Assembly (NCBI GenBank): GCA_944388145.1
Contig: CALXHQ010000011.1
Coordinates: 17,192 to 81,191 of the forward strand
Direction: 5' to 3'
DNA length: 64,000 bases
Origin: an uncultured Gemmiger sp.
GTDB lineage: Bacteria; Bacillota; Clostridia; Oscillospirales; Ruminococcaceae
In this document: positions 7,088 through 23,388 of the stretch, one piece after another
How the letters are laid out: each line of letters starts with the position of its first letter
How positions within the stretch are numbered: the stretch's first letter is position 1
The notes under the pieces: model-generated
Told to the model about the DNA's origin: nothing
Seen by the model: the letters and a program-made list of their open reading frames with translations, nothing else
Databases searched by the model: none
Translations under genes and position numbers: made by a program

Positions 7088-7124
7088 CAAGATGGCCGGG
7101 ACCACGCCCGGGGAGGTGTTTTTT

Positions 7125-7568
7125 ATGATGAAACTGAGTTTTGATGCGGTGGAACAACTGCTGGCCCGCCCCTGTTACCTGATCGACTGCCTGCCGGAAC
7201 AAGTTTCAGCAGACGGGACCGGACAATACTTTGCCGCGGAGGAATTCTGGCTGGCACACCCCGAATTTTTGGACCTGAAACGGCGGTTTACCAACTTGCT
7301 GCTGCGGTTGATGTGCTATTACCACATTGCCATGGAATGGTGCGGCTGGCACGACCAGCCCAGCCCCGACCGGGTGGCAGCCGCCATCGACACGGTGCTG
7401 TCCCACGGGGAAGGCACCATCGATATTCTGTTTCCGGAGGATGACGCCCTGCTGGTATTAAACGGGAACGACTTGTATCTTTCCGTATACAATCCCAACG
7501 CCGGGATGCAGCAGCTGATGCAGGCCATTGCCCGGGCAGAAGGGCTGTTTTGGCGGGACCCCTGCTAA
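7125..7568 (+). CDS. Unknown small protein at the end of the selenium operon
   Basis: 147 residues, starting MMKLSFDAVEQLLARPCYLIDCLP, not recognised. Start chosen at the ATG 7 bp after GGGGAGGTG; the open frame upstream of it overlaps yqeC-xdhC. No signal peptide or membrane segment. It has a Trp/Tyr-rich centre (MCYYHIAMEWCGWHDQPSP), a stretch IDILFPEDDALLVLNGNDLYLSVYNP and a C-terminal helix-like QQLMQAIARAEGLFWRDPC. Its place 37 bp after yqeC-xdhC and before the terminator puts it in the same transcript, so a role in Se/Mo maturation is possible but not shown. Confidence 0.75.
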   Translation: MMKLSFDAVEQLLARPCYLIDCLPEQVSADGTGQYFAAEEFWLAHPEFLDLKRRFTNLLLRLMCYYHIAMEWCGWHDQPSPDRVAAAIDTVLSHGEGTIDILFPEDDALLVLNGNDLYLSVYNPNAGMQQLMQAIARAEGLFWRDPC

Positions 7569-7591
7569 ACCGCCCTCTCAGTGCACAAACA

Positions 7592-7635
7592 ACAGCAAAA
7601 CTCCCTGAGTCGACCGGCTCAGGGAGTTTTGCTGT
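7592..7635. terminator. Bidirectional terminator between convergent operons
   Basis: An 18-bp perfect inverted repeat (7592-7609 with 7618-7635) flanked by A and T runs inside the arms (GCAAAACTCCC / GGGAGTTTTGC). It can stop both the selenium operon (+) and the ABC permease gene (-). Confidence 0.9.
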
Positions 7636-7654
7636 ATGGGGGCAGGCGGTTGGT

Positions 7655-10063
7655 TCAAGCATCCAGCTTGAGGCCTTTCCACTCATACCTGCCGGTCAAA
7701 TGCTGGCACAGTGCAGCGCAGCCTGCGGCCGCGGCCAGCATCAGCAGTACCACCACCCACCAACTGCTATACGGGGCGCCATCGACAGAACGGTACCCCT
7801 GCACCGCCAACAGCGCCGCAGCATGGAACAGCGGCCAGAAGCCCAGCCACTGGATGCCATTTTCCATGCCGGAAAGCGCCAGCAGCGGCGGCAGGCAATA
7901 GGCGGCTGCACTGACGAAAAGTGCCGGCAAAAAATTGCCGAACGCCTGCCCCAACCACAGGGTAACCAGTCCCATGCACAGGCAGGCCAAAACCCGGCAG
8001 GCAAACCAGAGCAGCAGCACATCGGCCAGACGGAAGGCGGAAGGCAGTGTTTCCAACTCAGAGATGCTCATAGCCGGAGCATTCAGAGCAGGCAGACCAT
8101 AGTCCCGCAGGACCTGAATCAGATGGGGCAGCGTGGTGCCGAAGGCGATCACTGTTGCCGTCCCCCCTGACGCCAGCAGTTTTGCCTGCACAGTGTGCTT
8201 GCGCCCCAGCGGCGTGGCGCACAGAATCTCATCCATGCCGCCTCTGCGCTCCATGGCAAACAGCCCGGCAAAGCAGGCCGCACAGAGCAGCCCTGCATAG
8301 AGCGTATCCTGCAGGTCGGACGTGCCGTCAAAGCCAAACAGCTGGCGGTAGCCGCTCTCGTAAACAAGCCAGGCACCGGGGTGCTCACCAAGATAGCCAT
8401 TGATGTTTTGACGGATGACCTGCTGATAGATGCTGTACTTCTGCTGCAGGCCCATGTAGGCCAGCATGGCATCGGAGCTCAAAGCCCCCTGCGCCACCAG
8501 GCGCTGAGTCTCCAACATGGGGGCAAACTCCTCCCCCTGCTGTTCCAGCCAGTCATAGCTTTGCTGGGTGAAGGGACCGGAAACACCTTTCATATAGTAA
8601 GCGTAATAGATTTCCTCGGCACTGATATAACTTTTCGCCGTCACCCCCTGCCAGACAGCGAAGGCAAGAAAAGCCAGTACAAAAATCAGCGCGCCGTTGG
8701 TTACCAGCAGTTTGCGGGCTTCCTCCCGCCGGATGGTTGTGGCGCGGGTTTTTCGGGCACGGCGCAGCAGCACAAAGCTTCGCTTTGCAGCCGGCAGCAG
8801 CTGCGCACGGGCAAACACCAGGCAAAAGCTCAAAAGAAATGCCGCACCGTAAACAATTGCCGACAGCCATTCCACCAGCGGCAGCCCCACCGGTGTGCCG
8901 AACCAGTACAGATTGCGGTAGTTCCCCAGCAATTCATTGGTCTGCAACAAGCTGGCCAGATTGGCATACTTCACCACATTCAGCCGGGCGGTGGCAGGAA
9001 TGGCCGCCCGGATACCGTACATAGCCAACGGCACTGCCAGTGCCGCCGTCCAGCCTGCCGCAGGCCGCCGGGCATACAGCGCAGCCAACATAACCCACAG
9101 CCCCATAACAAAGGCTCCCGCCCACTTGGCCAGCAAAAAGCGGAACAGATACTGCCCCACCGTGATCTGCATGGTACAGCGCATCAGGGCGGGCACGCTC
9201 TGGATCGTGCGTCCCAGTGGGCCAAGCCCGAAGCTGGCCGCACAGTAGAGCAGGTTGACCCCATACAGCACGGCCAACACAGCCAGAAGGCTGACGCCAA
9301 ACGCCGCCAGTTTGGCCAGCGCGGTCTTGAGCCGGCCTCCGGGCAGCGACCGCACAAGCGAGAGCAGTCCGCTGTCCCGTTCCTGCCGGACCAGGATCAG
9401 CGCCAGCAGCAGCATTCCTGCCAGCAGAATCAGGTCCGTGAAGGCGTAAGAGATGGCGGTGTACAGCCCCTTTTGCGGGTAATAATCGATAGGAGTTTCC
9501 CCCAGGCCGGCGTAGACCCGGGCAGTCAGCTCAATGTTTGCCAGATCATAGCCGGTCTCGTCGTTTTGAAAGATGGAGATGCCGGACAGCTGGGTGGCCT
9601 TTTCCTGCACGCTCTGCAAAAACTGGGAATAGCCGTTGACGGTGTCGTATTCGCTTAGCAGCTGGGTAAACAACAAGTATTCGGTGTTGGGATCCTCGGT
9701 GAAGAGGGTATAACTCTTGTCCAGATACTCCTGCTCGTACTGGTCGAACATGGCAGCGTTTTCCTCACGGTAATTGCGCAGCACCACACTGCCGCCATAG
9801 GCCAGCTGCTGGTAATAGTTGTCGATCTTCAGGATACTTTCAAACTCGGTGAGACGGGCGTTCAGGTATTCGCCTTTTTCGGGCATCGTCATACCCGAAA
9901 GCTCCTCCCCCACTGCCCGGTAAGCTCCTGCCGGCGGCTGGTTTGTGGTGGGCCGGGTGCCCATCCAGAGCAGCAACAGGTTGGCGGCTGCCAGCACGCC
10001 CAGCAGCATCGGAAAGACACGGCCGCCCCACACCTTGCGCAGCTCGGCAAAGAACAGGCTCAT
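7655..10063 (-). CDS. ABC-2 type transporter permease (large, two-half)
   Basis: 802 residues. It starts SLFFAELRKVWGGRVFPML with one membrane helix, then an extracytoplasmic segment rich in Gln/Tyr (about 40-200), a helix bundle (about 210-425), and after a basic linker (RRARKTRATTIRREEARK) a second half with the same plan: one helix, an outside domain, then a helix bundle containing FAMERRGGMDEI. This two-copy ABC-2 layout is typical of large Firmicute permeases. Its ATG overlaps the stop of the ATPase gene (ATGA), so they are one complex. Substrate is unknown; the co-transcribed lipoprotein suggests an envelope role. Confidence 0.85.
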   Translation of the reverse strand: MSLFFAELRKVWGGRVFPMLLGVLAAANLLLLWMGTRPTTNQPPAGAYRAVGEELSGMTMPEKGEYLNARLTEFESILKIDNYYQQLAYGGSVVLRNYREENAAMFDQYEQEYLDKSYTLFTEDPNTEYLLFTQLLSEYDTVNGYSQFLQSVQEKATQLSGISIFQNDETGYDLANIELTARVYAGLGETPIDYYPQKGLYTAISYAFTDLILLAGMLLLALILVRQERDSGLLSLVRSLPGGRLKTALAKLAAFGVSLLAVLAVLYGVNLLYCAASFGLGPLGRTIQSVPALMRCTMQITVGQYLFRFLLAKWAGAFVMGLWVMLAALYARRPAAGWTAALAVPLAMYGIRAAIPATARLNVVKYANLASLLQTNELLGNYRNLYWFGTPVGLPLVEWLSAIVYGAAFLLSFCLVFARAQLLPAAKRSFVLLRRARKTRATTIRREEARKLLVTNGALIFVLAFLAFAVWQGVTAKSYISAEEIYYAYYMKGVSGPFTQQSYDWLEQQGEEFAPMLETQRLVAQGALSSDAMLAYMGLQQKYSIYQQVIRQNINGYLGEHPGAWLVYESGYRQLFGFDGTSDLQDTLYAGLLCAACFAGLFAMERRGGMDEILCATPLGRKHTVQAKLLASGGTATVIAFGTTLPHLIQVLRDYGLPALNAPAMSISELETLPSAFRLADVLLLWFACRVLACLCMGLVTLWLGQAFGNFLPALFVSAAAYCLPPLLALSGMENGIQWLGFWPLFHAAALLAVQGYRSVDGAPYSSWWVVVLLMLAAAAGCAALCQHLTGRYEWKGLKLDA

Positions 10064-10891: not shown

Positions 10892-12238
10892 TCACAGCAG
10901 GGTGATCCATGCAAAGTCTGCCGTGGAGTTCAGGTATTCCTCTTTTGTCATGAGCGCCAGTTTCTGCCCCAGCGCCGCCATCATCCCGCCGGGGTTCTGC
11001 TCTTCCTCCACAGTGGCGGCTACCAGCAGGCGGTCCCCGGTTTGCGCGTAGATCTCGATGGGTACGCGGGTGGCATGATAGTAATTGGAGAGCGTCAGCT
11101 CCCGCATCTCACTGTTTCGGGTGTTGACCGCATAGCAGCTGTACAGCAGCTCAATGTCGCCGTTATCCAGCACGGTGTTGGAAGTCATCGCATTCAGGAT
11201 GACCCAGTCATCCACAAAGGCACGGATAAAAAGATCGTCCGGCCGGTCCACCGGGATGGTTTCCTTCAAATCAGTGATCAGGACACGGTTGTCCCCGGTG
11301 GCTGCATCGATGCAGCCCAGCGTGATCTGCTGCTCATCCGGGCCGGCCTCCAAATAGTACCAGCCCTCTCCGTGGGGCTGCCCCTGTTTTTCGCCGTTTT
11401 GGGGCGGGACAATGATGTGCGCCGCGCTGCCATCGAATGGGATCAGCCAAACGGCATCGGTGGGATCGTTGAGATCTGCGCCCGCTTCCACTGTCTTTAC
11501 GACAAAGCCGCCGGTTGTAACCCCCTGAAAGAAAGCCCCCGCCATTTTGCCTTCCTCCACCGTCGAAGCAGCGTCGAACAAAGTGGTACGCACCCCGGTG
11601 GCGGTATCGATCGCCTCCAGGCGGCGGGTGATGGCCGCGTTGTCCCCCTGATTGGATACACCGCTGATCATCATCACCAGCCATCCCGGCCGGTAAGCGG
11701 CGCCCGCCTCAAAGGTTTCGCCGGCGGATAATGTGCACAGGCGCTGCCGGTTGCTGCCATCCAGCTCTGCCCGCTCGAGGTATGCGCCATCCATGCCGTC
11801 GTTGTGAACAAAAAAGAGGGCATCTTCACAGGCGACGGGCCAGATCTGCTGATCCCCCGCCGGGAACCAGGATGTGCAGCTTTCCCCGTTGTGGGGGCAA
11901 TTGGCATTGGAGCACAGGTAGACCTGCTGCCGGGTGGCATAATCGATGTAGGTGGCATGGAAGGTGCCGTCCTCATGGGCGGCGACCTGGTAAAAGCCAT
12001 CCGCCGTGCCGCTGCCATACACGGTAAGATCGCAGGAGAGCACCAGCTCATACGGCTGGCCGTTCAGGGCGGCATTGGTTTGCGGGGACGGCTGCGGGAA
12101 ATCGGGGAGTTCCTGCCGGGCAGCAGACGATGACTGCGGCGCCGCCCCGCAGGCCGCCAGCAGGCTGACAGACAGCAGCATACATGCCAGCGTGCGGAGT
12201 ACTTTGACAAAGCATCTTCCTTGGACTTTGGGCAACAT
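10892..12238 (-). CDS. Lipoprotein 1, beta-propeller-like, CX4CXHX4C family
   Basis: 448 residues from the ATG behind AGGGGAAGG. A lipoprotein signal peptide ends in the lipobox SLLAAC; a Ser/Ala/Pro-rich linker follows. The body has the family pattern seen in five neighbours: YIDYATRQQVYLC, then CSNANCPHNGESC (CX4CXHX4C), then AELDGSNRQRL and further short repeats typical of TolB/DUF5050-like propellers, and a C-terminal MTKEEYLNSTADF. It should be anchored outside the membrane. First gene of the transcript with the ABC-2 ATPase and permease. A binding or sensing role is inference; a metal site at the Cys/His motif is plausible. Confidence 0.82.
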   Translation of the reverse strand: MLPKVQGRCFVKVLRTLACMLLSVSLLAACGAAPQSSSAARQELPDFPQPSPQTNAALNGQPYELVLSCDLTVYGSGTADGFYQVAAHEDGTFHATYIDYATRQQVYLCSNANCPHNGESCTSWFPAGDQQIWPVACEDALFFVHNDGMDGAYLERAELDGSNRQRLCTLSAGETFEAGAAYRPGWLVMMISGVSNQGDNAAITRRLEAIDTATGVRTTLFDAASTVEEGKMAGAFFQGVTTGGFVVKTVEAGADLNDPTDAVWLIPFDGSAAHIIVPPQNGEKQGQPHGEGWYYLEAGPDEQQITLGCIDAATGDNRVLITDLKETIPVDRPDDLFIRAFVDDWVILNAMTSNTVLDNGDIELLYSCYAVNTRNSEMRELTLSNYYHATRVPIEIYAQTGDRLLVAATVEEEQNPGGMMAALGQKLALMTKEEYLNSTADFAWITLL

Positions 12239-12290
12239 GACCTTCCCCTGCCTTTCCCGCATGAAGTGACACTTTCGATGTCTTACCCAC

Positions 12291-12321
12291 ATGGTAGCAG
12301 GCGGTTGCATCAAAGTTGTAT
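12291..12321 (-). promoter_or_regulatory. Repeat-box promoter of lipoprotein 1 / ABC-2 operon
   Basis: On the minus strand two 11-bp direct repeats (ATACAACTTTG, ATGCAACCGCC) run straight into TGCTACCAT, an extended -10-like element. The same layout is found upstream of lipoproteins 2, 3 and 5 and the DUF6056 gene. The repeats replace a -35 box, as at promoters activated by OmpR/PhoB-type regulators. Confidence 0.6.
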
Positions 12322-12337: not shown

Positions 12338-13651
12338 TCATTGCACTCTCTGGATTGGCTGCAACTCGGGGTCTTGTGCCGCAAACTGCTGTTTTGGGAT
12401 CAGGCTGTACCCGTATACCTGATTTTGCAGGGTGACGGCGGTGCCGTCGCCTTTATGCAGCTCAGCATCCTCATGCCGAATCTCCGTCATCACAAGATAA
12501 GCGGTATCATTTTCCGCCAGCACCGTGGCGCCCAACGGGTCTTTGCCATCTTCCTGTGTCAGGCATACATCTGAACGGGAAACCGCACCGGTCCCGGTGT
12601 CGACCAAAATTTGATACCCGTGGTCCTGCTCTGCATCCCAGCAGGGAATGAAGAGGGTGTTGCCCACCAGGTAGGGGGTATCCACCTGCTGGAAGCTATT
12701 CCCCGCCACTTCGGTCAGGGAGATGGTGGTTTGTACCTGCCCGTTCTCATCGCAAATGGCCACCTGGCGTTCGCCGTCGGGATAGTAATATAGCAGCGTC
12801 CCGCCTGCCATGTGTGGTTCCGCGTACCGACCGTTGCTGGGGCAAAGATCAGCCAGCTCGCTCAAGGTGCCGGATTGAACATCCAGCGTTGCCAGTGTGT
12901 GCGTGGTGGCCCCCATGTCCCCCTCTGAATTTTCCCGGTTTGGGTCAATGCCGATTTGGTGGAGATAGAGCAGGCCGTCCCGGCAGCCGATGAGATTGTA
13001 GTAGTCGTTTGCGGGCAGGTTGGCAACCACCGCTGCCTCGCCCCCGTCCTCTGGTATTCGCAGTACTTTGGTACCATCAGATTCCTGCTGAAGCAGGTAA
13101 AGACATCCCTGGCCGCCAACGGCGTACATCAAAAGAGTGCTGCCATCATCGCAGGTATAGATCTGTGTCTGAGCACTGCCGTCCAGATTCATCCGGTAGA
13201 CTGCGCCGGCAGCCAGAGCACCAAGGTCGCTGTTTTCCACGGAGCCGGAGCGGATAAAGTACAGGTGATCCGCATAGACAAACATACGGTAGTCGCCGAC
13301 AATGGAATCCAGGTAGGCGGTGTCTGTTTCGTCGGAATGGTCGCTGTTGACCTGTGTGGATAGCGGAATATCCATACAGGTGGCGTAATCCACATAGCGG
13401 ATCTGGCCGGTCAACGCATCAGACAGCCCGGGTTCCACGTAGTAATACCCCTCCGAAGTGCCGGCCCCCACGCTAAGGAGCCGGTCCGGGATCAGCATGG
13501 TCAACTGTTCACCGCCGGAGGGAGGGTTTCCCGCCGCGGGTGCCGCGGAAGGATCGGCGGACCCGCCCGCACCAGAACCCCCGCAGGCTGAGAGAAAGAG
13601 CGCCGCCGCCAGGATGGCTGACACCTGCATACCGGATCTTACTTGTTTCAT
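12338..13651 (-). CDS. Lipoprotein 2, beta-propeller-like, motif lost
   Basis: 437 residues from the ATG behind AGGAG. Signal peptide and lipobox FLSACG are almost identical to lipoprotein 3, from a 246-bp duplicated DNA segment. The body keeps IRYVDYATCM, MNLDGSAQTQIY and a C-terminal LIPKQQF, but where its relatives have CX4CXHX4C it reads CMDIPLSTQVNSDHSDETD, keeping one Cys and one His only. It is therefore either specialised or drifting. It has its own repeat-box promoter at 13721-13751. Exported and lipid-anchored; function unknown. Confidence 0.8.
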   Translation of the reverse strand: MKQVRSGMQVSAILAAALFLSACGGSGAGGSADPSAAPAAGNPPSGGEQLTMLIPDRLLSVGAGTSEGYYYVEPGLSDALTGQIRYVDYATCMDIPLSTQVNSDHSDETDTAYLDSIVGDYRMFVYADHLYFIRSGSVENSDLGALAAGAVYRMNLDGSAQTQIYTCDDGSTLLMYAVGGQGCLYLLQQESDGTKVLRIPEDGGEAAVVANLPANDYYNLIGCRDGLLYLHQIGIDPNRENSEGDMGATTHTLATLDVQSGTLSELADLCPSNGRYAEPHMAGGTLLYYYPDGERQVAICDENGQVQTTISLTEVAGNSFQQVDTPYLVGNTLFIPCWDAEQDHGYQILVDTGTGAVSRSDVCLTQEDGKDPLGATVLAENDTAYLVMTEIRHEDAELHKGDGTAVTLQNQVYGYSLIPKQQFAAQDPELQPIQRVQ

Positions 13652-13780
13652 ACAGATCACTCCTGTTCCGCAATTTTGCCGCCGCGGCTTTCGGGTTTGT
13701 GCCGCAGTTGTTCTGGTTACAGGATAGCAGGTGCGTGTATCCAAGTTGTAACGCGGGCAGCCCCCGCGGGGTGTCTGGCG
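13535..13780 (-). repeat. 246-bp near-identical direct repeat, copy A
   Basis: Copy A of a segment repeated at 15201-15449, nearly identical in my reading, with few substitutions and small indels in the G/C run near the distal end. It covers the repeat-box promoter, the ribosome binding site, the signal peptide and the first linker residues of lipoprotein 2. Beyond it the two genes diverge sharply. Confidence 0.88.
13721..13751 (-). promoter_or_regulatory. Repeat-box promoter of lipoprotein 2
   Basis: Minus strand: TTACAACTTGG, ATACACGCACC, then TGCTATCCT as extended -10. Two 11-bp direct repeats, identical in layout to the boxes at 12291 and 15387. Confidence 0.6.
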
Positions 13781-13782
13781 CC

Positions 13783-14000
13783 AATTCCGGTTGCACGGCA
13801 TTGTTCCTTCCTTCTCACACAGCAAGGTACTCCATGCAAAGTCTGCCGTGGAGTTCAGGGATTCCTCTTTTCGCATACAGTGCCGGGACTTTTCCAGTAG
13901 CCGAATGTAGCATAACAGCCACCTGCCTTTCCCGAATACGGGAGCCTTTTTGGTGGTCCCGCATCCGTGGTGGCAAGCGGCTGTATCAAAGCACCGATAT
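13783..14000 (-). pseudogene. Decayed remnant of a lipoprotein 1 / ABC operon copy
   Basis: 13783-13875 matches 10825-10955, the junction of the lipoprotein 1 3-prime end and the ATPase start, including about 40 bp around TCCATGCAAAGTCTGCCGTG with one mismatch; the ATPase ATG has become GTG. 13920-13997 resembles the 5-prime region of lipoprotein 1, with CCTGCCTTTCCC and a degenerate repeat box (ATACAGCCGCT followed by TGCCACCAC). The coding body between them and the rest of the ATPase gene are gone. The region to 14090 holds no intact gene. Confidence 0.68.
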
Positions 14001-14090: not shown

Positions 14091-15317
14091 TTACATTCCG
14101 GTGATATATTGGTAATTGGGCCGGGAATGCAAATAATCGTCCCGGGAGATGAGGGCATAGACCGGGCGCAGGCTGGTGATATCCCCACCGCTTTGTTGCA
14201 TATTCCAAGCAGCCCGCACCAGAAGATTGTCGCCGGACTGTGCCAGCACCAGAATGACATTCTGCTGGTCCTTGTAGTACAACGTCATGGGAATGGTTTC
14301 GCCAGTGGAGGGGTTGACATGGTAGTCTGTGATCCGATTGGTTTCCGCATCCAGAAGCTGCACCCGGTACCAGCCGTCCCACAGCCCGAAAACAATAATC
14401 TGTGCGTTTGGTATTCCCGCCTGCGCCGCCAGCGTGTCCGCCTGCCAAGTGAGGATTGTGCCGTCGCTCAGGTCGGTGAAAGTTGCCTGCTGCCCTGTGG
14501 TTTGGACAAGCACATCGCCGAACAGGGTCGCCCCCTGCTGCGAATCAAAGGGCTGCTCGACCAGCGGCTGCTCCATCTCGCCGGTAGCGGTATCATACAA
14601 CTCCACCGCATAGCGGGTCTCGCCGGTGGAGAGCTCTTCATAGGCCAGCGACAGGCCAAGGCGTGTACCGAATCCGGTCAACAGCTGGGCATCTGAATTT
14701 TCCGGAAATGTGTATAGAAGATCCACCCGCCCATCCTGCAGGCTGATGCGAATCAACTGCATCACCGGCGTGCTATTCTGTACGGTACCTGCCAAGGCAT
14801 ACAAGTTTTGGGCGTCGGTGTAAATTTCCGGCCGCAGTGTGACAGTCGCATCCAACTGGCATAACGTCTGAGGGTTACTGCCGTCCGGCTGGCAAAGCAT
14901 CACCCGGGCTGGAGCGTCTTCCGTTGGTGCAGTCTGGATGATCGCCAGCTGATCCTCCAGCAGAGCAAGCACCGGAACAGCCATATTCTCGATCAGTGCA
15001 TAGGCAGTGCAGCTGCTGTCCGAATGGGCACATTCCGGACGGCTACAAAGTGGCATCTGCTGCCGTGAGGCATAGTCGATATAAGTAACGATAGCTGCAT
15101 TGCCCCACTCCTCCGTGGTATAGTAACCGTCTGCATTGCCGGCACTGACCAGCTGCAGTTCCTTCGTTGCGGCCGATTGCTCTGCGGAAGATTCTGCTGT
15201 CGCGGGTGCCGCGGAAGGATCGGCGGACCCGCCCGCACCAGAACCCCCGCAGGCTGAGAGAAAGAGCGCCGCCGCCAGGATGGCTGACACCTGCATACCG
15301 GATCTTACTTGTTTCAT
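14091..15317 (-). CDS. Lipoprotein 3, beta-propeller-like, CX4CXHX4C family
   Basis: 408 residues from the ATG behind AGGAG. Signal peptide with lipobox FLSACG, Gly/Ser/Ala-rich linker, then YIDYASRQQMPLC, CSRPECAHSDSSC (the CX4CXHX4C motif), CQPDGSNPQTLC, several short propeller-like repeats and a C-terminal LISRDDYLHSRPNYQYI. The first 34 residues match lipoprotein 2 because of the duplicated DNA, whereas the rest is closer to lipoproteins 1 and 5. That pattern points to gene conversion or promoter-module transfer. Predicted outer-surface anchored; ligand unknown. Confidence 0.82.
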   Translation of the reverse strand: MKQVRSGMQVSAILAAALFLSACGGSGAGGSADPSAAPATAESSAEQSAATKELQLVSAGNADGYYTTEEWGNAAIVTYIDYASRQQMPLCSRPECAHSDSSCTAYALIENMAVPVLALLEDQLAIIQTAPTEDAPARVMLCQPDGSNPQTLCQLDATVTLRPEIYTDAQNLYALAGTVQNSTPVMQLIRISLQDGRVDLLYTFPENSDAQLLTGFGTRLGLSLAYEELSTGETRYAVELYDTATGEMEQPLVEQPFDSQQGATLFGDVLVQTTGQQATFTDLSDGTILTWQADTLAAQAGIPNAQIIVFGLWDGWYRVQLLDAETNRITDYHVNPSTGETIPMTLYYKDQQNVILVLAQSGDNLLVRAAWNMQQSGGDITSLRPVYALISRDDYLHSRPNYQYITGM

Positions 15318-15449
15318 ACAGATCACTCCTGTTCCACAATTTTGCCGCCGCGGCTTTCGGGTTTATGCCGCAGTTGTTCTGGTTACAGGATAGCAGGCGC
15401 GTGTATCCAAGTTGTAACGCGGGCACCCCCCCGCGGGGGTGTCCGGCGC
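15201..15449 (-). repeat. Near-identical direct repeat, copy B
   Basis: Second copy of the segment at 13535-13780, here supplying the promoter and signal-peptide region of lipoprotein 3. Offset between copies is 1,666 bp. Copies in the same orientation could recombine and delete or exchange the gene between them. Confidence 0.88.
15387..15417 (-). promoter_or_regulatory. Repeat-box promoter of lipoprotein 3
   Basis: Minus strand: TTACAACTTGG, ATACACGCGCC, then TGCTATCCT. It lies inside repeat copy B and differs from the copy A box by one base. Confidence 0.6.
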
Positions 15450-16697
15450 TCAGTTGATATTGGTGAAGTTTGCCGTGCCGGCCATGCAATCATCGAAGGG
15501 AATTGCCTGGTAGAAGGTCCGCTCCCAGCTGGTTTGTGTGGTGCCGTTGTATGCGTTGTTTTCCAAAATCAGGATGTCTTCCTCCGGCCCTGCCGCGCCC
15601 ACGACCTGCAGCGGCCGCCCGGTGACGGCGTCGGTGAAGGGAAACTCCACCACCTGGCCGGTCTGGCAGTTGATGGCAAACATCTTGACCTGAAGGGAAG
15701 AATCTTCCTCCACACCGGTGACGCTGTCGACAAACAGGGTATCGTGGTAATACCCCTCAACGTAGATGCCGGCGGTGCCCTGCACGGACGGGAAGCAGTC
15801 CGGCAGATGGATCTCCTGTGTGCCGTCAGTTGCGGTCAGGGTAACCTGTTCCCCGTCGGGTTCCAGCTGGAACCACCAGGGGCCGCTGGCATATCCGACC
15901 ATCTGCTCCTGCTCGTACTCGGTGCGGGGCGTCCAGGCCCCAGTGGCCGGCGCATAGGTGGAGACTTTATGGATTCCGTCCGTTGTGATTTCCTTGATCC
16001 AAAGTTCGTCCCCGTCTGTGCCGAGGACAAAGAGATACCCCTCGTTTGCGCTGTAAAGGGTGGTCAGCTCCCCGGTGTTCACGTCCAGGCTGATCAGCTC
16101 ATTGCTGTACGCACCTTCCGGCGAGACGGTTGACCGCGTCAGATACAGGCGCGCACCGTCGCTGACCACACCGGCCCCCATCGTCTGGCCGCTGCCAAAG
16201 GTGTAAAGCGTATGCCGGTCGCCGCCATCGAGGTTGCCCACCTCAATCCTGGCGGGATACTCGTTTTGGCCATCGTTGTAATCGATGAAGAACAGATAGA
16301 GATGTTCCTCGTCCACACCAATGGAGGGGGCAAAGCCGGTGGAAGTGGCAAAGGCGGTGCAGCTGTCGTCCGTGTGCTGGCAATTGGGGCTGGCGCACAG
16401 GTAGGTGGCCTGGCCGGTGGCCAAATCCCAATAGTGGATCATGGAGCGCCCGTCCTCGATCTCAACCCAGTACATTCCCTGGTCGGTACAGGCCTGTGCC
16501 CCGGTGTCATCCGGGGAAAGGGAAAGCATCTTCAGTTCCCCGGCGGGGGCGTTGTCCCCGGCGGGCGGGGCGGAAGGGGCGGCATTCTCTGACGTTGCGG
16601 GCGCTCCCGCCTGCTGTGCAGAGCACGAAGCAAGTACAGCTGCGGCCATCATTACAGATAGTATTTGCAGAGGGAAAATGTTTGACTTTTTATTCAT
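15450..16697 (-). CDS. Lipoprotein 4, beta-propeller-like, CX4CXHX4C family
   Basis: 415 residues. Signal peptide NKKSNIFPLQILSVMMAAAV with lipobox LASC, a Pro/Ala linker, MIHYWDLATGQATYLC, CASPNCQHTDDSC (CX4CXHX4C), GNLDGGDRHTLYTFG and further blade-like repeats (ISLDVNTGELTTLYSA). The C terminus AGTANFTNIN lacks the YLxS motif of its relatives. The ribosome binding site AGGAG is 10 bp from the ATG. Unlike the others it has no 11-bp repeat box upstream, only a long inverted repeat at 16729-16781, so it may be regulated differently or read from the secreted protein gene. Confidence 0.8.
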   Translation of the reverse strand: MNKKSNIFPLQILSVMMAAAVLASCSAQQAGAPATSENAAPSAPPAGDNAPAGELKMLSLSPDDTGAQACTDQGMYWVEIEDGRSMIHYWDLATGQATYLCASPNCQHTDDSCTAFATSTGFAPSIGVDEEHLYLFFIDYNDGQNEYPARIEVGNLDGGDRHTLYTFGSGQTMGAGVVSDGARLYLTRSTVSPEGAYSNELISLDVNTGELTTLYSANEGYLFVLGTDGDELWIKEITTDGIHKVSTYAPATGAWTPRTEYEQEQMVGYASGPWWFQLEPDGEQVTLTATDGTQEIHLPDCFPSVQGTAGIYVEGYYHDTLFVDSVTGVEEDSSLQVKMFAINCQTGQVVEFPFTDAVTGRPLQVVGAAGPEEDILILENNAYNGTTQTSWERTFYQAIPFDDCMAGTANFTNIN

Positions 16698-16824: not shown

Positions 16825-17376
16825 TTACCGGGCTTTCCAAAGTGAAGAAGTGGAAGATCCAACTCCTGTTGTAAAATTGATAATTGCGGAATTGCCGCCG
16901 CCGGTAGCATTCAGATACTGTCCATCATAATTTGCAAGCCGGAAACGATAACCACTCGCATAGCTTCCTGTGCACATAAGATTCGAATCAAAATAGGCAG
17001 TGCTTCCAGACCAGAGTATTGCATTACCTGTGTCTTTATCACGGTTAATCATCAGGGTGTATTTCGAACCGTTCGGAGGAGCAGTCTGTACACGAAGCGT
17101 CAAATAGCCACCACTGCTGGTGTATCCCTTGAAGCGCTGGTCACTGCTGCTAGTGCGAGCCCAGATACGAAGCGGCGTACCTTTTTGCACCGGATTTCCA
17201 TTGATCGGATACGCATTGAGATAGCCACAGCCTGTTTGGCCACCGTAGCTCTGATAGAAGTATTCTTTGCCTGCAAGGCCATTTGTATAGTCGGCCGCAA
17301 ACGTCGGCACGGCCATACCAACGGCCATCACCATAGCCAGCAACAGGGTAAGCAGACGTTTCTTTGCTTTTGTCAT
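16825..17376 (-). CDS. Secreted protein, possible beta-trefoil (ricin-like) fold
   Basis: 183 residues from the ATG behind AAGGAGG. A classical signal peptide (TKAKKRLLTLLLAMVMAVG then AVPTFAA) predicts cleavage near residue 28. The mature part of about 155 residues has repeated short motifs: GYLNAYPINGNPVQKGTPL, YTLMINRDKDTGNAIL, YRFRLANYDGQYLNATG, ending SSLWKAR. This spacing of hydrophobic and Gly/Asn turns recalls beta-trefoil lectin-like domains, but that is a guess. Base composition is clearly lower in GC than the neighbours, suggesting transfer. It is divergent from a PadR regulator and has an excellent promoter. Confidence 0.78.
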   Translation of the reverse strand: MTKAKKRLLTLLLAMVMAVGMAVPTFAADYTNGLAGKEYFYQSYGGQTGCGYLNAYPINGNPVQKGTPLRIWARTSSSDQRFKGYTSSGGYLTLRVQTAPPNGSKYTLMINRDKDTGNAILWSGSTAYFDSNLMCTGSYASGYRFRLANYDGQYLNATGGGNSAIINFTTGVGSSTSSLWKAR

Positions 17377-17514
17377 TTTGATGTCCTCCTTTTCAAAGGT
17401 TTTGTTTGGGTTTGGGTTGGGTTTCGATCCGTACTGCAAAGCGCCCGCGCGCTGGCGCTTGTACCGTAATCATTCGGCCGCTTCGGCGGCCCCTTTTCGT
17501 GCTATCTTGGTTAG

Positions 17515-17623: not shown

Positions 17624-18013
17624 ATGGCAAATACCAACTCTTCCCGTGCGCCCCGCAGCGGCACCGCCGCCGGTATGCGGGAGTCGATCAAAAAGGCCGT
17701 CACCGAGATGATGGTCCTGTTTTTGCTGCGCCAAAAGCCGATGTATACCTACGAGATGTCACAGGAGCTTACGCGGCTGACGGGCGGCGTTTATACCTTC
17801 AATACGCTGTATCTTGCCATCTATCGCCTGCAGGAGCACGGCTACATCACCGAGGCCGGCAAGCAGGAGGCGGGCAACCGCCTCAGGGTCTACTTCAAGC
17901 TGACGGACGCCGGGCAGCGGTATCTGGACGAGCTTCTGCCCACTTACCGTGAGATGATCGGCGCGCTGGATTCCCTGCTGGCGCAGGATGGCAAGCTGTA
18001 CAAGGAGGAATGA
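17624..18013 (+). CDS. PadR family transcriptional regulator
   Basis: 129 residues. After a Ser/Ala/Arg-rich N terminus, the winged-helix core runs about 20-105: VTEMMVLFLLRQKPMYTYEM, then GGVYTFNTLYLAIYRLQEHG (the DNA-facing helix) and a wing RLRVYFKLTDAGQRYL, followed by a helical dimerisation end. PadR proteins are small-molecule or stress-responsive repressors, usually autoregulated. It heads a three-gene unit with a HAAS-type membrane protein and a secreted protein and faces the secreted protein gene across overlapping promoters. Confidence 0.9.
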   Translation: MANTNSSRAPRSGTAAGMRESIKKAVTEMMVLFLLRQKPMYTYEMSQELTRLTGGVYTFNTLYLAIYRLQEHGYITEAGKQEAGNRLRVYFKLTDAGQRYLDELLPTYREMIGALDSLLAQDGKLYKEE

Positions 18014-18015
18014 CC

Positions 18016-18426
18016 ATGTATGAAAGTGAAGTGAAGGATTACTGCCGGCGCGCCGGCAGTCTGCTTGCCTGCAGCCGGGCACAGCGGCAGCAATTTGACC
18101 GCCTGACCCGCCAAAGCGTGCAGGAGTACCTGCAGGAGGTGCCCGGCGCGCCCTGGCCGGAGGTGGAGCGGACGCTGGGCAGCCCTGAGGAGGCCGCCAG
18201 TGCGTTTATGGAATCCCTTCCGCCAGACACTGCGGAGCATTGGGCCGGCGCGCACAAGTGCCGCCTGCGGCTGGCAGCCGCCGCCGTCTGCCTGGTGTTT
18301 GCGCTGCTGGTAGGTGTGATTGCATTCTTTGTGATAACCAAAGGCGTGGCGATCATCGAAAAGGAAACCACCATCTATTATTTAGATGACAATTCTTCTA
18401 TGCCGCCGTTGCCGGATTTGGAATAA
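18016..18426 (+). CDS. PadR-associated HAAS/DUF1700-like membrane protein
   Basis: 136 residues from the ATG 7 bp after AAGGAGG; an alternative ATG 6 bp earlier overlaps the PadR stop but sits on the ribosome binding site. Residues 1-70 are a cytoplasmic helical domain with PWPEVERTLGSPEEAASAF, the usual HAAS signature. One membrane helix follows (LAAAAVCLVFALLVGVIAFF), then a short outside tail. PadR/HAAS pairs are thought to couple membrane state to transcription. Here the partner output gene is probably the secreted protein that follows. Confidence 0.85.
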   Translation: MYESEVKDYCRRAGSLLACSRAQRQQFDRLTRQSVQEYLQEVPGAPWPEVERTLGSPEEAASAFMESLPPDTAEHWAGAHKCRLRLAAAAVCLVFALLVGVIAFFVITKGVAIIEKETTIYYLDDNSSMPPLPDLE

Positions 18427-18977: not shown

Positions 18978-20351
18978 TCAAAAGGGCAGGCCCGGGTCGC
19001 CGCAGATGGTGTCCACGCCGTAATAAAAGGCCAGCGCCACATTGCGCTCATTTTCAGGATTTTGCATCAGGTCAGACAGGGCGTCGCCCCAAAACGGGCT
19101 GAATCGGGTCCGAGCGGCGGGCAGGATGGGGACTGTCAGATCAGTCTCGCCCGCGGCGCGGCTTTGCTCGATCCGGGCAGCGCGGGCGTCGGTGTTCCGG
19201 CGCAGCGCCGCCAGCTCGGCAACACCGGCGGGCAGCTGCAATGCCAGGGCCAGGGCCAGCACCCCGCAGGCCAGGGCAGGCCAGCGCAGCCGCCGGACCA
19301 GACGGTTGGCGCATACCAGCACCGCCGCGGCCAAAAAGGCCACGGTGCCCAGCATACTGCGCAGCGGATAAGCAGGCGAGGCAGTCATAGCCACATGGCA
19401 GGCCGCCGCACCGCCCAACAGCCACAGCGCGGGCGGCAGCTGCCGGGGCTGCCGGATGGCTAACTGCGCCGCCAGCAGAACGGCCAGCAGGATCAGCCAC
19501 CAAGCCTGTTCCCACAGAGCCAAGGTGTACTGTACCAACCGGGACGGCAGCAGCGCCAGGCCCAGCCCGGCCTGCCCATACCCCGCTGCACGGCGGTAGT
19601 TGCCGGGAGCGGCCATCAGCAGCGCAAAGCCCAGCCATTGCCCCGCCGCGCCCGCCGCCAGCAGACGGGGCATTGGGCGATGGCGGAAATGTATCTGCAC
19701 CAGGCGGGCGGTGCAGAGCAGGCAGGCGGCTGCACTCTGGTTTTCCATGCTCCAGCCGGAAAGCAGTCCCAGCAGAAACCACCATCCCGCACCGCGGCGC
19801 AGCTGGGGCATCCAACCCGGATGGATGTAGGGTCCCAAAAACCACATTGTCGCCGTCATGGTCCACAGGTAGTTCACCGATCCGGTCTGCCAGAGAAAGT
19901 TTTGCCCGAGGGCGGGAGTGCCCACCCAGAGCAGCAGTGCCGCCCCCGCCGCTGTCCACGCCGATGCCGCCGGGCTTTGGGGGCGGGCAAGCTTGGTCAA
20001 AGCGGCCGCCAGCAGCAAAAAAAGCGCTGCATTGCACAGGTCAAACAGCCAGCCCGGCAACAGGGTGGAGATCATCACGATGCCCAATACCGGCAGCCGC
20101 CCGCTATGCACTGCGCAGACCGCCTTGAGCGAGGACAGCAGGTCCGCCATACTTCGCAGCTTTCCCGCCGGGAAAAGCACCCCGTCCGGCCGGACCGTCA
20201 GGCGGCAGGCAAAAAAGTAATCGTCTGCCACCATGGGTGTCAGCAGGTTCAGAATCAGCATGCACACCCCCGCTCCGGCCAGCACAGCCAGCCAGGGCCG
20301 ACGAGGCGGGGCAGGCAGCGCCCTGTAACTTGTTTGTTGGTGCAGTTTCAT
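18978..20351 (-). CDS. DUF6056-like multi-pass membrane protein
   Basis: 457 residues from the ATG behind AGAGGGGG; the frame extends upstream past the promoter. About ten membrane helices. After the first helix comes PMVADDYFFACRL, an acidic DDY motif on the outside, then HSGRLPVLGIVM and FLWQTGSVNYLWTMTATMW. DDY, SGR and W-GSxNYLW are features of DUF6056 proteins, which have a GT-C glycosyltransferase-like topology; a role in cell-surface glycan assembly is inference. It has its own repeat-box promoter of the lipoprotein type, 46 bp before the start. Confidence 0.78.
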   Translation of the reverse strand: MKLHQQTSYRALPAPPRRPWLAVLAGAGVCMLILNLLTPMVADDYFFACRLTVRPDGVLFPAGKLRSMADLLSSLKAVCAVHSGRLPVLGIVMISTLLPGWLFDLCNAALFLLLAAALTKLARPQSPAASAWTAAGAALLLWVGTPALGQNFLWQTGSVNYLWTMTATMWFLGPYIHPGWMPQLRRGAGWWFLLGLLSGWSMENQSAAACLLCTARLVQIHFRHRPMPRLLAAGAAGQWLGFALLMAAPGNYRRAAGYGQAGLGLALLPSRLVQYTLALWEQAWWLILLAVLLAAQLAIRQPRQLPPALWLLGGAAACHVAMTASPAYPLRSMLGTVAFLAAAVLVCANRLVRRLRWPALACGVLALALALQLPAGVAELAALRRNTDARAARIEQSRAAGETDLTVPILPAARTRFSPFWGDALSDLMQNPENERNVALAFYYGVDTICGDPGLPF

Positions 20352-20396: not shown

Positions 20397-20427
20397 ATGA
20401 TACCGCCGGATTGTATCCAAACCGTTT
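20397..20427 (-). promoter_or_regulatory. Repeat-box promoter of the DUF6056 gene
   Basis: Minus strand: AAACGGTTTGG, ATACAATCCGG, then CGGTATCAT (-10 TATCAT). The distal repeat is weak, the proximal repeat and -10 spacing agree exactly with the lipoprotein boxes. Confidence 0.45.
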
Positions 20428-20452: not shown

Positions 20453-21823
20453 TTATGGCAGAAGCTGGACGGGCCGCAGGGCGTCCGCGTCGGAATCCAG
20501 ATACGCCTGCTGATTGATCAGCGACCACTCGGCCTGCTGAGGCCCCGCCCCTGGGGTGGCATGATTGCCGGTCACCAACAGTACATCGGCTGCGTTCTTT
20601 CCCAACATGGTGCACAACAGCAAATCGGCGCCGGACTGTTGGCGGATAGTCAGCTCTCGCCGTTCCCCCGTCTGCACCTGAACGGCATAGCAGGAATCGG
20701 TGACCCTCCAGGAGGTACCCGCCTCATTTTGCTGGCTTTGCCCCTGGGAGAGCAGAAACCAGTCCCCCATCTGGCCATCCAGCCAGAAAGAGGTGGCGCC
20801 CACGTCCGGCAGGGTGGAAAGCTCCGTGGCCAGGCCGTTGGGCAGGGTGATGCGCGTCAGTGTGCGGGTATCCAGATCGAGATAAAACAGCCCCGCCTCC
20901 GTGAGAAGGTCGTAGACCCGCCCGCTGTAAGTGACCGTACCGACGGGTTGGGAACTGCCCACCGGGACCACGGTGCAGGTATACTGTGCAGAGCGTTCGA
21001 TCTCCTCATGGATGTCCGCCCAGTCCTGGCCGGGAAAGTCGGCCTCGGATTTGGTTTGGATTTTTTGCCGCAAAACGCAGCAGCCATTTTCGGTAACCCC
21101 CAGGAAGGCCGGTTCGGTCCCGTTCAGCTGGACCGGACAGGTATAAAAATCGGTGCGTGCACCGGTATCCAGGTCGATCGACACCAGTTTGAAGGTGGCG
21201 CCGATCCCCTGCTGGCCGTCGGAGCTCACCTCATTCAGAGCACAAATCAGCTGACTGCCATTGGCGGCAAAAGTCCGACTCAAACGCTCGTTGGCGGCAA
21301 ATTCCACCAAAGTATGGCGGTCACTGCCGTCCAGGTTGGCGGCCTCGATGTGAGGAATGGCACGTTCCGGGGCTTCGGCCCCGTAGGTAATATGCACCAG
21401 CAGCAGGTGTTCCCCGCTGACCAGCGGAAGGTAGCCGCCCTCATCAGGGTCAAGCCAGGCGGTACAGTTTTCCTGATCATGGGTGCAGTTTGGGTCAGCG
21501 CACAGGTAAATTTCCCGGGCAGTCTGGTAGTCAACATAGAGGATTTTGTTACCGGTGGCCTCGTCATAACGAATCTCATAAAAGCCCTGGTCGCCGCCGC
21601 ACCCCCACAGAGAGGCATCCTCCCTGGTTAAGGTGACGAAGCCTGTTGCCGCGGGCTCAGCCGGGGTCTGTGTTGGCAGCGGTGCAGCGTCCTGCTCCGA
21701 TGCAGGAGGGGCTTCGTTTGGCGGCGTGCACCCCGTCAGCAGCGCAGCGGCCAACAAAGCGGCCATCACAGAGCAGCGGGGCTTTTTCCGGCGATATGTT
21801 TGCCGCGGTTTTAACAGTTTCAT
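20453..21823 (-). CDS. Lipoprotein 5, beta-propeller-like, CX4CXHX4C family
   Basis: 456 residues from the ATG behind AAAGGTGG. A basic N region (MKLLKPRQTYRRKKPR) precedes the hydrophobic stretch and lipobox LLTGC. The body has ILYVDYQTAREIYLC, CADPNCTHDQENC (CX4CXHX4C), AANLDGSDRHTL, ISLDTGAR-like repeats and a C-terminal LINQQAYLDSDADAL. It is the closest full-length relative of lipoprotein 1. A leader of roughly 190 nt separates it from the strongest repeat box of the region (four repeats). Secreted and lipid-anchored; ligand unknown. Confidence 0.83.
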   Translation of the reverse strand: MKLLKPRQTYRRKKPRCSVMAALLAAALLTGCTPPNEAPPASEQDAAPLPTQTPAEPAATGFVTLTREDASLWGCGGDQGFYEIRYDEATGNKILYVDYQTAREIYLCADPNCTHDQENCTAWLDPDEGGYLPLVSGEHLLLVHITYGAEAPERAIPHIEAANLDGSDRHTLVEFAANERLSRTFAANGSQLICALNEVSSDGQQGIGATFKLVSIDLDTGARTDFYTCPVQLNGTEPAFLGVTENGCCVLRQKIQTKSEADFPGQDWADIHEEIERSAQYTCTVVPVGSSQPVGTVTYSGRVYDLLTEAGLFYLDLDTRTLTRITLPNGLATELSTLPDVGATSFWLDGQMGDWFLLSQGQSQQNEAGTSWRVTDSCYAVQVQTGERRELTIRQQSGADLLLCTMLGKNAADVLLVTGNHATPGAGPQQAEWSLINQQAYLDSDADALRPVQLLP

Positions 21824-22015: not shown

Positions 22016-22068
22016 ATCATAACAGGTGGTTGTATCCTGCTTGTACCGTGCTTGTATAAAAGTTGTAT
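22016..22068 (-). promoter_or_regulatory. Four-repeat regulator box and -10 upstream of lipoprotein 5
   Basis: Minus strand, four consecutive 11-bp direct repeats: ATACAACTTTT (22058-22068), ATACAAGCACG (22047-22057), GTACAAGCAGG (22036-22046), ATACAACCACC (22025-22035), directly followed by TGTTATGAT (22016-22024). Exact one-turn spacing and the place just before the -10 suit cooperative binding by an OmpR/PhoB-type activator. 21824-22015 is leader with no recognised element. Confidence 0.72.
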
Positions 22069-22108: not shown

Positions 22109-23029
22109 TCATGAGGCGCCGGTTTCCTCCTCCAAAGGCAGCCAGTTGGGGGCACCGTCCAGGTAATCCTGCTGTTCGATCAGCGCAAGATCCGGTATTT
22201 CAACTGTGGTCGCATAGTGGGTGCCATCTTGCCCGGTGAGCATTGTTTCCCGGCTGCGAATGCCCCGCTGTACCAGGAAACGGCTGCCCACGGAGGCCAA
22301 CGGCTCGCAGGGGACGGTGATGTTCCCCTGCCGAAAGCTCAGGCGAACGGGACGGGCGGTGCCATCCGCCAGATGGATCAGATAGGCCTGCCAGTCCGTT
22401 CTATGGCGTGCAATGTCCTGGACGGTGACAAACAATTCTCCATTGCAGGGGGTACCGGCAATCAGGCTGTTGCCGCCATAGTAAGGAATGTCCGTCTGGA
22501 ATTCCGTCTCCTGTCCGGTAATCAGATCCCGATGGATCAAATGGCAGCTGTTCCCTTTCCCGGGGGCGAACAGCCACAGCGTATAGCCGTCCGGCACAGC
22601 GGTGGGGGCGGCGGGTCCGTAGTCGTTGGCATACTGATACAATTCAGCGGCGGTCCCGTCCGTCGGGTTGCAGGACAGCCAGGTGTCTGTACCGTCCCCA
22701 TGGCACAGCACCAGCAGCTTGCCTGCCCCGGCGCCCATCAGCCAGGCGGTGTCCGGCAGAGTAATCAGCGTGCGGACATGACCGGCGGCAAGCTCGATGC
22801 AGCGCAGTTCGCGACAAGTGTCGCCCATTTGGCGGCCCAGTACCCGCACAGTCAGGTAGAGGGCTTGGCCATCCCCCGCCACCGCACCGGTGAGGTTCTC
22901 GCCGGGGGCAGCAGTCCAAACCTGACGCCGGTTGCTGCCGTCCGGGGACATTTGCCATAGCGTATCCCGCTGGCCGTCGCTGGAAACGGCAAACAGGCTG
23001 TCACCTGCACCGGATGCAAAGACGGACAG
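22109..23029 (-). pseudogene. Lipoprotein 6, N-terminally deleted copy
   Basis: About 305 residues align with the second half of lipoproteins 1 and 5 (MSPDGSNRRQVW, RCIELAAGHVRTLITLPD, C-terminal LIEQQDYLDGAPNW), but the signal peptide, lipobox and CX4CXHX4C region are missing. The frame stays open upstream only by running through a repeat box and a tRNA gene. The repeat box at 23021-23051 now abuts the propeller body, so a deletion removed leader and N terminus. It cannot be exported; a cytosolic product from an internal start is possible but unlikely. Confidence 0.75.
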
Positions 23030-23051
23030 TGCGGTTGTATCTGAGTTGTAA
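23021..23051 (-). promoter_or_regulatory. Repeat box stranded in front of the truncated lipoprotein 6
   Basis: Minus strand: TTACAACTCAG, ATACAACCGCA, then CTGTCCGTC, where the -10 sequence is lost. The repeats are intact but the promoter is probably dead. 23052-23270 shows nothing else recognisable. Confidence 0.5.
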
Positions 23052-23270
23052 CGGGTGAGGCATCCGCCGGGGCTGCTCTCAGACAGTCGGCCCCTGCGCC
23101 ATGTAAGTGGGTCTTTGCCGGCGCCTTTCCCTGCCCGGGAGACACTTGCTTTCCGCAAACAGTTACCGGCAACGCAGAGCACACAGCGTGAGCGGTATTG
23201 CCAGTTGTACCAGACAACGGCCTTTTGTCCCCCCCTCGAAGTCCTGTTCAAAGAGCGGATAAATAAACAG

Positions 23271-23312: not shown

Positions 23313-23388
23313 TGGTGGACCTGGAGGGATTCGAACCCTTGACCTCTCGGATGCGAACCGAACGCTCTCCCAACTGAGCTACAGGCCC
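23313..23388 (-). tRNA. tRNA-Ala (anticodon CGC)
   Basis: 76 nt including an encoded CCA. Acceptor GGGCCTG/CAGGTCC with the G3-U70 wobble that marks alanine tRNAs, D arm GCTC-GAGC, anticodon loop TTCGCAT (CGC at 23353-23355), T arm AGGG-TTCGAAT-CCCT. One A-C mismatch at the base of the T stem. It has its own promoter and terminator. Confidence 0.93.

What the first reader, a model, noticed from the sequence alone, without database searches (positions are those of the whole stretch)
22016..22068. Four 11-bp direct repeats define a regulator box shared by lipoprotein and DUF6056 promoters
Minus strand repeats ATACAAnnnnn occur four times at exact 11-bp spacing and run into a -10-like TGTTATGAT. 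Two-repeat versions sit in the same register at 12291-12321, 13721-13751, 15387-15417 and 20397-20427, and degenerate ones at 13976-13997 and 23021-23051. A shared activator of the OmpR/PhoB type, binding in place of a -35, would explain this. No matching response regulator is in the window, so a trans-acting system elsewhere appears to control this island.
Basis: partly seen in the sequence, partly recalled or inferred. Interest (0 to 1): 0.75.

Follow-up and report, generated by a model that had tools for sequence, protein, structure and literature searches.

The report
Shared regulator box, regulator found elsewhere
A short repeated DNA element that appears to switch on a cluster of surface lipoprotein genes in a gut bacterium is real, and the same element sits in front of a two-component regulator gene elsewhere in the genome and in related species, which names the likely controlling protein and makes the gene network testable.

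Summary
On the minus strand, 22016-22068 carries four 11-bp repeats running into TGTTATGAT; two-repeat versions in the same register lie at 12291, 13721, 15387 and, weaker, 20397. 13721/15387 are one duplication; 13976 is chance; 23021 has no -10. That RR is the likely trans regulator: an OmpR/PhoB-family protein at contig C2:317083-317745 of the same genome; across the 18 RR loci only its promoter region holds a full box (30.7; next 15.5, opposite strand, one half-site). Its relatives carry the box upstream in 23 of 30 loci, own genome included, at up to 3 mismatches. Many other confirmed targets are lipoprotein genes, and the RR operon encodes a domain homologous to those lipoproteins (hhalign 99.3%). 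Best explanation: an autoregulated two-component system, built like MtrAB-LpqB and WalRK-WalA but passing the membership tests of neither, activates these promoters by binding in place of a -35. Binding, transcription starts and signal are untested. New member of a known kind.

The parts
22016..22068 (-). Four-repeat box and extended -10 of the propeller-like lipoprotein gene 20453-21823: hexamers 22068-22063, 22057-22052, 22046-22041 (GTACAA), 22035-22030; TGTTATGAT at 22024-22016
   Evidence: matrix 29.7
20453..21823 (-). Lipoprotein (ATG at 21823), C-x4-C-x-H-x4-C motif, predicted beta-propeller
   Evidence: orthologues in G005, G010, G021 (59-61% identity) have the box upstream
20397..20427 (-). 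Weaker box of the DUF6056 gene (AAACGG-N5-ATACAA-N5-CGGTATCAT)
   Evidence: matrix 20.7; the four DUF6056 orthologues in other genomes score 10.2-19.9 upstream, three of the four below the Markov-window maximum of 13.9
18978..20351 (-). DUF6056 membrane protein gene, ATG at 20351
   Evidence: PF19528 E 2.8e-82; start codon
15387..15417 (-). Two-repeat box of lipoprotein gene 14091-15317
   Evidence: matrix 29.9
14091..15317 (-). Lipoprotein with C-x4-C-x-H-x4-C motif
13721..13751 (-). Two-repeat box of lipoprotein gene 12338-13651; duplicate of 15387
   Evidence: matrix 29.7; 255-bp duplication at 94%
12338..13651 (-). Lipoprotein gene; cysteines of the motif lost; weak DUF5050 match below cut-off (24.1 against 27 bits)
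12291..12321 (-). Two-repeat box of lipoprotein gene 10892-12313 (true start probably inside the listed frame)
   Evidence: matrix 20.8
10892..12313 (-). Lipoprotein, C-x4-C-x-H-x4-C motif
23021..23051 (-). Probable relic box: both half-sites, no -10, within the frame of a lipoprotein gene without its 5' part
   Evidence: matrix 17.8
15450..16697 (-). Lipoprotein of the same family WITHOUT a box (counter-example)
   Evidence: best score -4.5 upstream

Best explanation
The repeats are the binding site of an OmpR/PhoB-family response regulator encoded elsewhere in the same genome (C2:317083-317745), first gene of an operon RR, HAMP/HisKA/HATPase kinase, and a 693-residue protein, membrane-anchored by eye, carrying the same domain as the window lipoproteins. 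Proposed working: the phosphorylated RR binds head to tail to two hexamers, (A/T)TACAA-N5-GATACAA, ending 8 bp before the -10, thus covering positions about -37 to -21 of promoters with no usable -35, and recruits RNA polymerase; extra upstream repeats (four at 22016) let more RR load. It activates its own operon and a set of propeller-like lipoprotein genes, in some species perhaps also cell-wall enzymes. Shown: sequence, register, rarity, conservation in promoters of the RR and lipoprotein genes, homology of the operon's third protein to the targets. Inferred: binding, phosphorylation, activation, transcription start. Unknown: the signal.
For: Among 18 RR loci of the genome, both strands, only this RR's promoter region has the full box. 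RR relatives: box in 23 of 30 loci at up to 3 mismatches (22 by script, own genome included, plus G001). Genus scan: 50 matches against 4 reversed-pattern controls in 35 genomes; of 43 matches outside the own genome, 14 lie before the RR orthologue and 14 before genes judged by eye (signal peptide, lipobox) to be lipoproteins. Of 61 more distant RR relatives (under 63% identity, four of them Gemmiger), 8 have the two half-sites with at most 1 mismatch, shuffle mean 0.3, maximum 2; the eight are L184, L196, L198, L199, L204, L209, L238, L241, none titled Gemmiger. Operon third protein family against window lipoproteins, profile-profile: probability 99.3, E 4.1e-20. OmpR-family C-terminal domain in the RR. 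The conserved bases allow at most 3 of 6 matches to TTGACA at spacers of 16-18 bp, so no good -35 (follows from the counts).
Against: No binding or expression data. Two paralogous RRs in the same genome (60-61% identical, C2:36046 and C2:201305) sit in similar operons with lipoproteins and have partly similar promoter repeats, so they could share sites. In one search, of 30 RR loci, one has 4 mismatches, four have 5-7, and three were not located by the script (G001 was then found and G014 as a diverged box, G015 was not). One intact window lipoprotein gene has no box; two of eight relatives of the 20453 lipoprotein scored outside the other window genes have none (7.5 and 3.9). The DUF6056 boxes are weak. 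Single-sequence comparison of the third protein with the lipoproteins was weak (probability 17.8) before relatives were added.
Confidence: 0.77

Rival explanations
1. A paralogous two-component system (C2:36046 or C2:201305), or several RRs with overlapping specificity, controls the window promoters.
For: All three systems are in operons with the same lipoprotein type; recognition-helix stretches are near-identical by eye; paralogue promoters hold related half-sites (GGATACAA..., GATACAG-N5-ATACAT). The amidase box (C2:30732) stands beside the C2:36046 system.
Against: Upstream of the two paralogues in the own genome the matrix scores only -2.8 and 3.4, against 20.7-29.9 for the window boxes. 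In 37 further RR loci fetched as paralogues the best is 14.8. Paralogue clades keep their own variants (for example ATAGAA-N5-GAAAGAA) in several species.
Confidence: 0.15
2. The boxes belong to the WalR-like regulator of this organism (closest candidate C8:108332).
For: WalR consensus TGTWAH-N5-TGTWAH (PMC4168254, PMC9210968, passages seen) is a 6+5+6 direct repeat; the M23 endopeptidase box GTTACA-N5-GTTACA fits its reverse complement by eye; cell-wall enzymes are among the genes behind boxes.
Against: The proximal half-site has A or G, never the required T, at the second consensus base in 21 of 21 training boxes. The C8:108332 locus has no box (best 8.8). M23 orthologues outside the own genome have the box in 1 of 24 loci examined.
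Confidence: 0.04
3. Bound as proposed, but the RR represses rather than activates.
For: Sites touching the promoter core can be repressor sites; C. difficile RR_1586, which binds 11-bp direct repeats, repressed reporters in E. coli (PMC6222199, passages).
Against: No good -35, constant 8-bp phasing to the -10, and S. venezuelae MtrA with a site at -34 of its own operon and less MtrB and LpqB in the mutant, where the authors note that polar effects are possible (PMC13189361, passages), favour activation.
Confidence: 0.12
4. The repeats are only inherited promoter copies of a duplicated gene family, without a regulator.
For: 13721 and 15387 are one duplication.
Against: The same box stands before an unrelated RR gene and amidase-like genes in several species, and weakly before DUF6056 genes.
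Confidence: 0.02

Closest known systems
MtrAB-LpqB three-component system (Actinomycetota)
   Same: Operon order RR, kinase, exported protein; RR site of two motifs with a 5- or 6-bp spacer; site in the own promoter at -34 (PMC13189361, passages); MtrA is the best solved-structure match of the RR, RegX3 practically equal (156.5 and 156.0 bits).
   Different: RR scores 182.2 bits against the MtrA cut-off of 300; no LpqB-type Pfam domain found in the third protein; half-site GATACAA instead of GTnAC; many targets are relatives of the third protein.
WalRK with WalA (Clostridioides difficile)
   Same: RR and a kinase without PAS domain, with a lipoprotein of predicted propeller fold in the operon (PMC9210968, passages); hexamer-N5-hexamer site.
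   Different: RR scores 147.6 against the YycF cut-off of 340; C. difficile wal is reported not autoregulated, whereas here the box is in the own promoter; half-site differs.
C. difficile RR_1586
   Same: Clostridial OmpR-family RR binding two 11-bp direct repeats (PMC6222199, passages).
   Different: Repeat DRTTAAGNWWW; listed targets include sporulation and germination genes; repressor in reporter tests.
PhoB pho box
   Same: Direct repeats of 11-bp period (PhoB consensus seen in a passage of PMC4168254; use in place of a -35 recalled). PhoB is the top NCBIfam model for the RR.
   Different: RR scores 192.2 against the PhoB cut-off of 296.2; other half-site and targets.

Membership tests
OmpR/PhoB-family direct-repeat promoter | Hexamer-N5-hexamer direct repeats, 11-bp period | tested here: met
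OmpR/PhoB-family direct-repeat promoter | Fixed phase to a -10 and no good -35 | tested here: met
   8 bp to the -10 hexamer in all 21 training boxes, which were chosen by a pattern that includes the -10, and in five window boxes
OmpR/PhoB-family direct-repeat promoter | Regulator has a winged-helix Trans_reg_C domain | tested here: met
   C2:317509-317724, 82.0 bits against 26.2
OmpR/PhoB-family direct-repeat promoter | Regulator binds the box | not testable with these tools
   needs EMSA or footprint
WalR/WalK | RR passes the YycF equivalog cut-off | tested here: not met
   147.6 against 340 bits; another RR of the genome scores 241.8, also below
WalR/WalK | TGTWAH-N5-TGTWAH consensus | tested here: not met
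   second base of the reversed proximal half-site is A or G in 21 of 21
MtrAB-LpqB | Operon RR, kinase, exported propeller-type protein | tested here: met
   L023 5084-9227; domain shared with window lipoproteins, one of whose models matches propellers; the third protein itself was not modelled
MtrAB-LpqB | RR passes the MtrA equivalog cut-off | tested here: not met
   182.2 against 300 bits
MtrAB-LpqB | Third protein has an LpqB Pfam domain | tested here: not met
   no such match up to E 0.1 in 13 homologues, 12 of them cut by locus ends
DUF5050 (PF16472) | Match above the gathering score | tested here: not met
   of the six lipoprotein frames of the window only 12338-13876 matches, 24.1 against 27 bits

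The most novel reading that the evidence does not exclude
The two-component system controls an expanding family of relatives of its own third component: the lipoproteins, sharing a C-x4-C-x-H-x4-C propeller-like domain with the operon's third protein, act as interchangeable envelope sensors or feedback partners of the kinase, and three such systems have split within one genome, each with its own variant of the promoter half-site.
Probability: 0.25. Interest if true: 0.72.

Novelty: new member of a known kind. Interest (0 to 1): 0.52.

Why it matters
It ties an unnamed lipoprotein cluster of a gut commensal to one named regulator with a defined site, gives a predicted regulon that can be tested in a culturable relative, and offers a series of paralogous regulators whose DNA sites can be compared to see how RR specificity diverges. 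If the lipoproteins feed back on the kinase, it would be a clostridial counterpart of LpqB and WalA.

Tried and rejected
Rejected: site 13976 (score -15.6); genome hits C4:77393, C7:84151 and C21:3049 as targets (scores 10.8, 8.3 and 5.6); the C7 hit had looked tempting because an RR gene lies about 1 kb downstream. M23 endopeptidase as a core target: box in the own genome and G016 only, 2 of 25 loci. WalR and MtrA membership (cut-offs not met). Pfam and NCBIfam gave no match above a curated cut-off for the lipoproteins and third proteins scanned. The first named-genome search with the third protein found nothing; the RR was used instead. Single-sequence comparison of the third protein with the lipoproteins was weak, and with the 249-residue protein of the C2:201305 operon gave no similarity. 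Papers: no hit for Gemmiger with two-component, response regulator and binding site, none for ATACAA with response regulator and direct repeat; DUF5050 in 3 papers, listing seen only; a search with Subdoligranulum among its terms showed ten of 71 papers, none of the ten holding that word. Listings only were seen for papers not named in this report. The lipoprotein model is of middling confidence (pLDDT 67.9); its listed PDB matches are by title mostly propeller proteins but with low TM-scores, so the fold is likely, not certain.

The matrix was trained partly on window boxes and is circular for the window; the claim rests. In one search the training boxes were the best pattern matches upstream of RR relatives (up to 4 mismatches), so the column counts partly reflect that choice. 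Left out of training: the own genome, four loci with 5-7 mismatches, two loci where the script found no start (G014, G015), and two identical copies. One search scored 16 of the 18 RR genes in one direction because my script had taken a wrong frame for two, made while checking this report, scanned all 18 loci on both strands.

Full report
1. What is there. The minus strand at 22068-22016 reads ATACAACTTTT-ATACAAGCACG-GTACAAGCAGG-ATACAACCACC-TGTTATGAT. Five window sites (12291, 13721, 15387, 20397, 22016) share one layout: two hexamers 11 bp apart, five bases, then an extended -10. Full-box matches with up to 3 mismatches: 4, expected 0.01. 13721 and 15387 belong to one 255-bp duplication (94%), so the independent strong cases number three, plus the weaker DUF6056 site.

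2. The genome. The window lies in G000:C11 of a 2.73-Mb genome. The full box with up to 3 mismatches occurs 11 times against 3 for the reversed pattern; with up to 2 mismatches 7 against 1, four of the 7 in this window. One hit, C2:316909-316939, precedes an OmpR-family RR gene. The genome has 18 Trans_reg_C genes. All 18 loci (about 3.2 kb each) were scanned on both strands with the independent matrix: 30.7 at this promoter region (held by L040 and by its divergent neighbour L034), then 15.5 on the opposite strand near the C8:80901 RR (one good half-site), then 8.8. Scored in the direction of the gene over 400 bp, 16 RRs gave 30.7 for this one and 5.9 at most for the others.

3. The operon. 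RR (L023 5084-5749), kinase with HAMP, HisKA and HATPase domains (5746-7149) and a 693-residue protein (7146-9227). The third protein contains C-x4-C-x-H-x4-C; 13 members of its family against the six window lipoproteins give hhalign probability 99.3, E 4.1e-20, although the single sequence gave only 17.8. Two paralogous operons (C2:36046 and C2:201305) also join RR, kinase and lipoproteins of this type; a lipoprotein of the latter matches the window family at 97.5%.

4. The genus. The closest named relatives of the RR are Gemmiger and Subdoligranulum records, some from chicken, and lengths of named contigs agree with same-genus handles (for example 801,102 bases in G010 and Gemmiger gallinarum), so the genus is inferred to be Gemmiger. 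33 of 35 genomes have an RR match at E 1e-60, which may include paralogues. Of 30 loci examined, 23 have the box at up to 3 mismatches (22, own genome included, plus G001) and one has 4; G014 has a more diverged box (24.5); L064, L075, L078 and L079 have 5-7 mismatches and G015 was not located. The box pattern with up to 2 mismatches gives 50 matches in 35 genomes, reversed pattern 4; 8 of 35 genomes have no match. Of 43 matches outside the own genome, 14 precede the RR orthologue; 14 precede genes that by eye are lipoproteins (nine, one, four); two precede amidase-like genes, in G016 and G006 (named by resemblance to the Amidase_3 gene); one an M23 gene in G016; one a penicillin-binding-like gene in G020 (by eye). 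The other 11 were not assigned or look like chance.

5. Independent test. Twenty-one distinct RR-promoter boxes from other species made a matrix; in the window its eight best of 127,940 positions are 15387, 13721, 22016, 12291, 20397, 23021 and two register shifts inside 22016-22068; the ninth scores 9.9. Sixty Markov windows, one strand each, reached 13.9. Leave-one-out scores of the training boxes run from 16.1 to 42.8. Orthologues of the 20453 lipoprotein in G021, G005 and G010 have boxes upstream (17.7, 22.2, 21.3); more distant relatives in G018, G008 and G017 too (35.0, 18.8, 18.1); those in G016 and at C9 of the own genome do not (7.5, 3.9). DUF6056 orthologues score 10.2, 19.9, 11.5 and 10.3 in the other four genomes that have one; three of these are below the Markov maximum for a whole window, though the stretch searched was under 2 kb.

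6. Further relatives. Among 80 named RR relatives, those at 63% identity or more have both half-sites with at most 1 mismatch in 15 of 19 (shuffle mean 0.025), the others in 8 of 61 (mean 0.3, maximum 2). The eight are none of the four Gemmiger records in that group. L198, L199, L204 and L209 also keep a -10 at the same distance by eye. So most distant relatives (53 of 61) do not show it. In L199 and L204 the operon is followed by what looks like a D,D-carboxypeptidase (by eye).

7. Mechanism. With the -10 hexamer at -12 to -7, hexamers lie at -37 to -32 and -26 to -21. The conserved bases exclude a good -35 at usual spacing. This is the geometry expected for an RR that replaces the -35 contact (PhoB-like; recalled), and close to the MtrA site at -34 of its own operon (PMC13189361, passages). 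I therefore favour activation with autoregulation. Binding, phosphorylation and transcription starts were not tested.

8. What it is not, by tests made. YycF, MtrA and PhoB equivalog cut-offs are not met; the WalR consensus is not met; LpqB and DUF5050 Pfam criteria are not met. It works like MtrAB-LpqB or WalRK-WalA without being filed there.

9. Lipoproteins. The AlphaFold model of 20456-21820 is almost all beta (pLDDT 67.9) and its listed PDB matches are by title mainly propeller proteins. One array member, 15450-16697, lacks a box, and 22109-23059 is a 5'-truncated relic whose box has no -10.

10. Papers. PMC9210968, PMC13189361, PMC4168254 and PMC6222199 were seen as passages from term searches, not in full. 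Pho-box promoter geometry is recalled.

Noticed in passing
L023 4008-4634 (G000:C2:316.0k, minus): A second OmpR-family RR gene is divergent from the RR named here and shares its promoter region; no kinase was looked for beside it.
   Followed up: no
L129, L131-L133, L139, L142 upstream regions: A paralogous RR clade has a different conserved promoter element (close to ATAGAA-N5-GAAAGAAGTGTACAGTA), suggesting that RR and site diverged together.
   Followed up: partly
window 23313-23388: tRNA-Ala (CGC) gene directly upstream of the truncated lipoprotein gene and relic box.
   Followed up: no
window 16825-17439: Small secreted protein that looks like a lectin-type (ricin B-like) protein inside the lipoprotein array; by eye, no search made.
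   Followed up: no
window 17624-18426: PadR regulator gene followed by a small membrane protein gene, possibly a DUF1700-type partner (second name by eye).
   Followed up: partly
L022 1930-5819 (G000:C14): An ABC-transporter operon headed by a lipoprotein-like gene has a box of the same layout (26.4) with two further degenerate repeats upstream by eye, a likely further target.
   Followed up: partly
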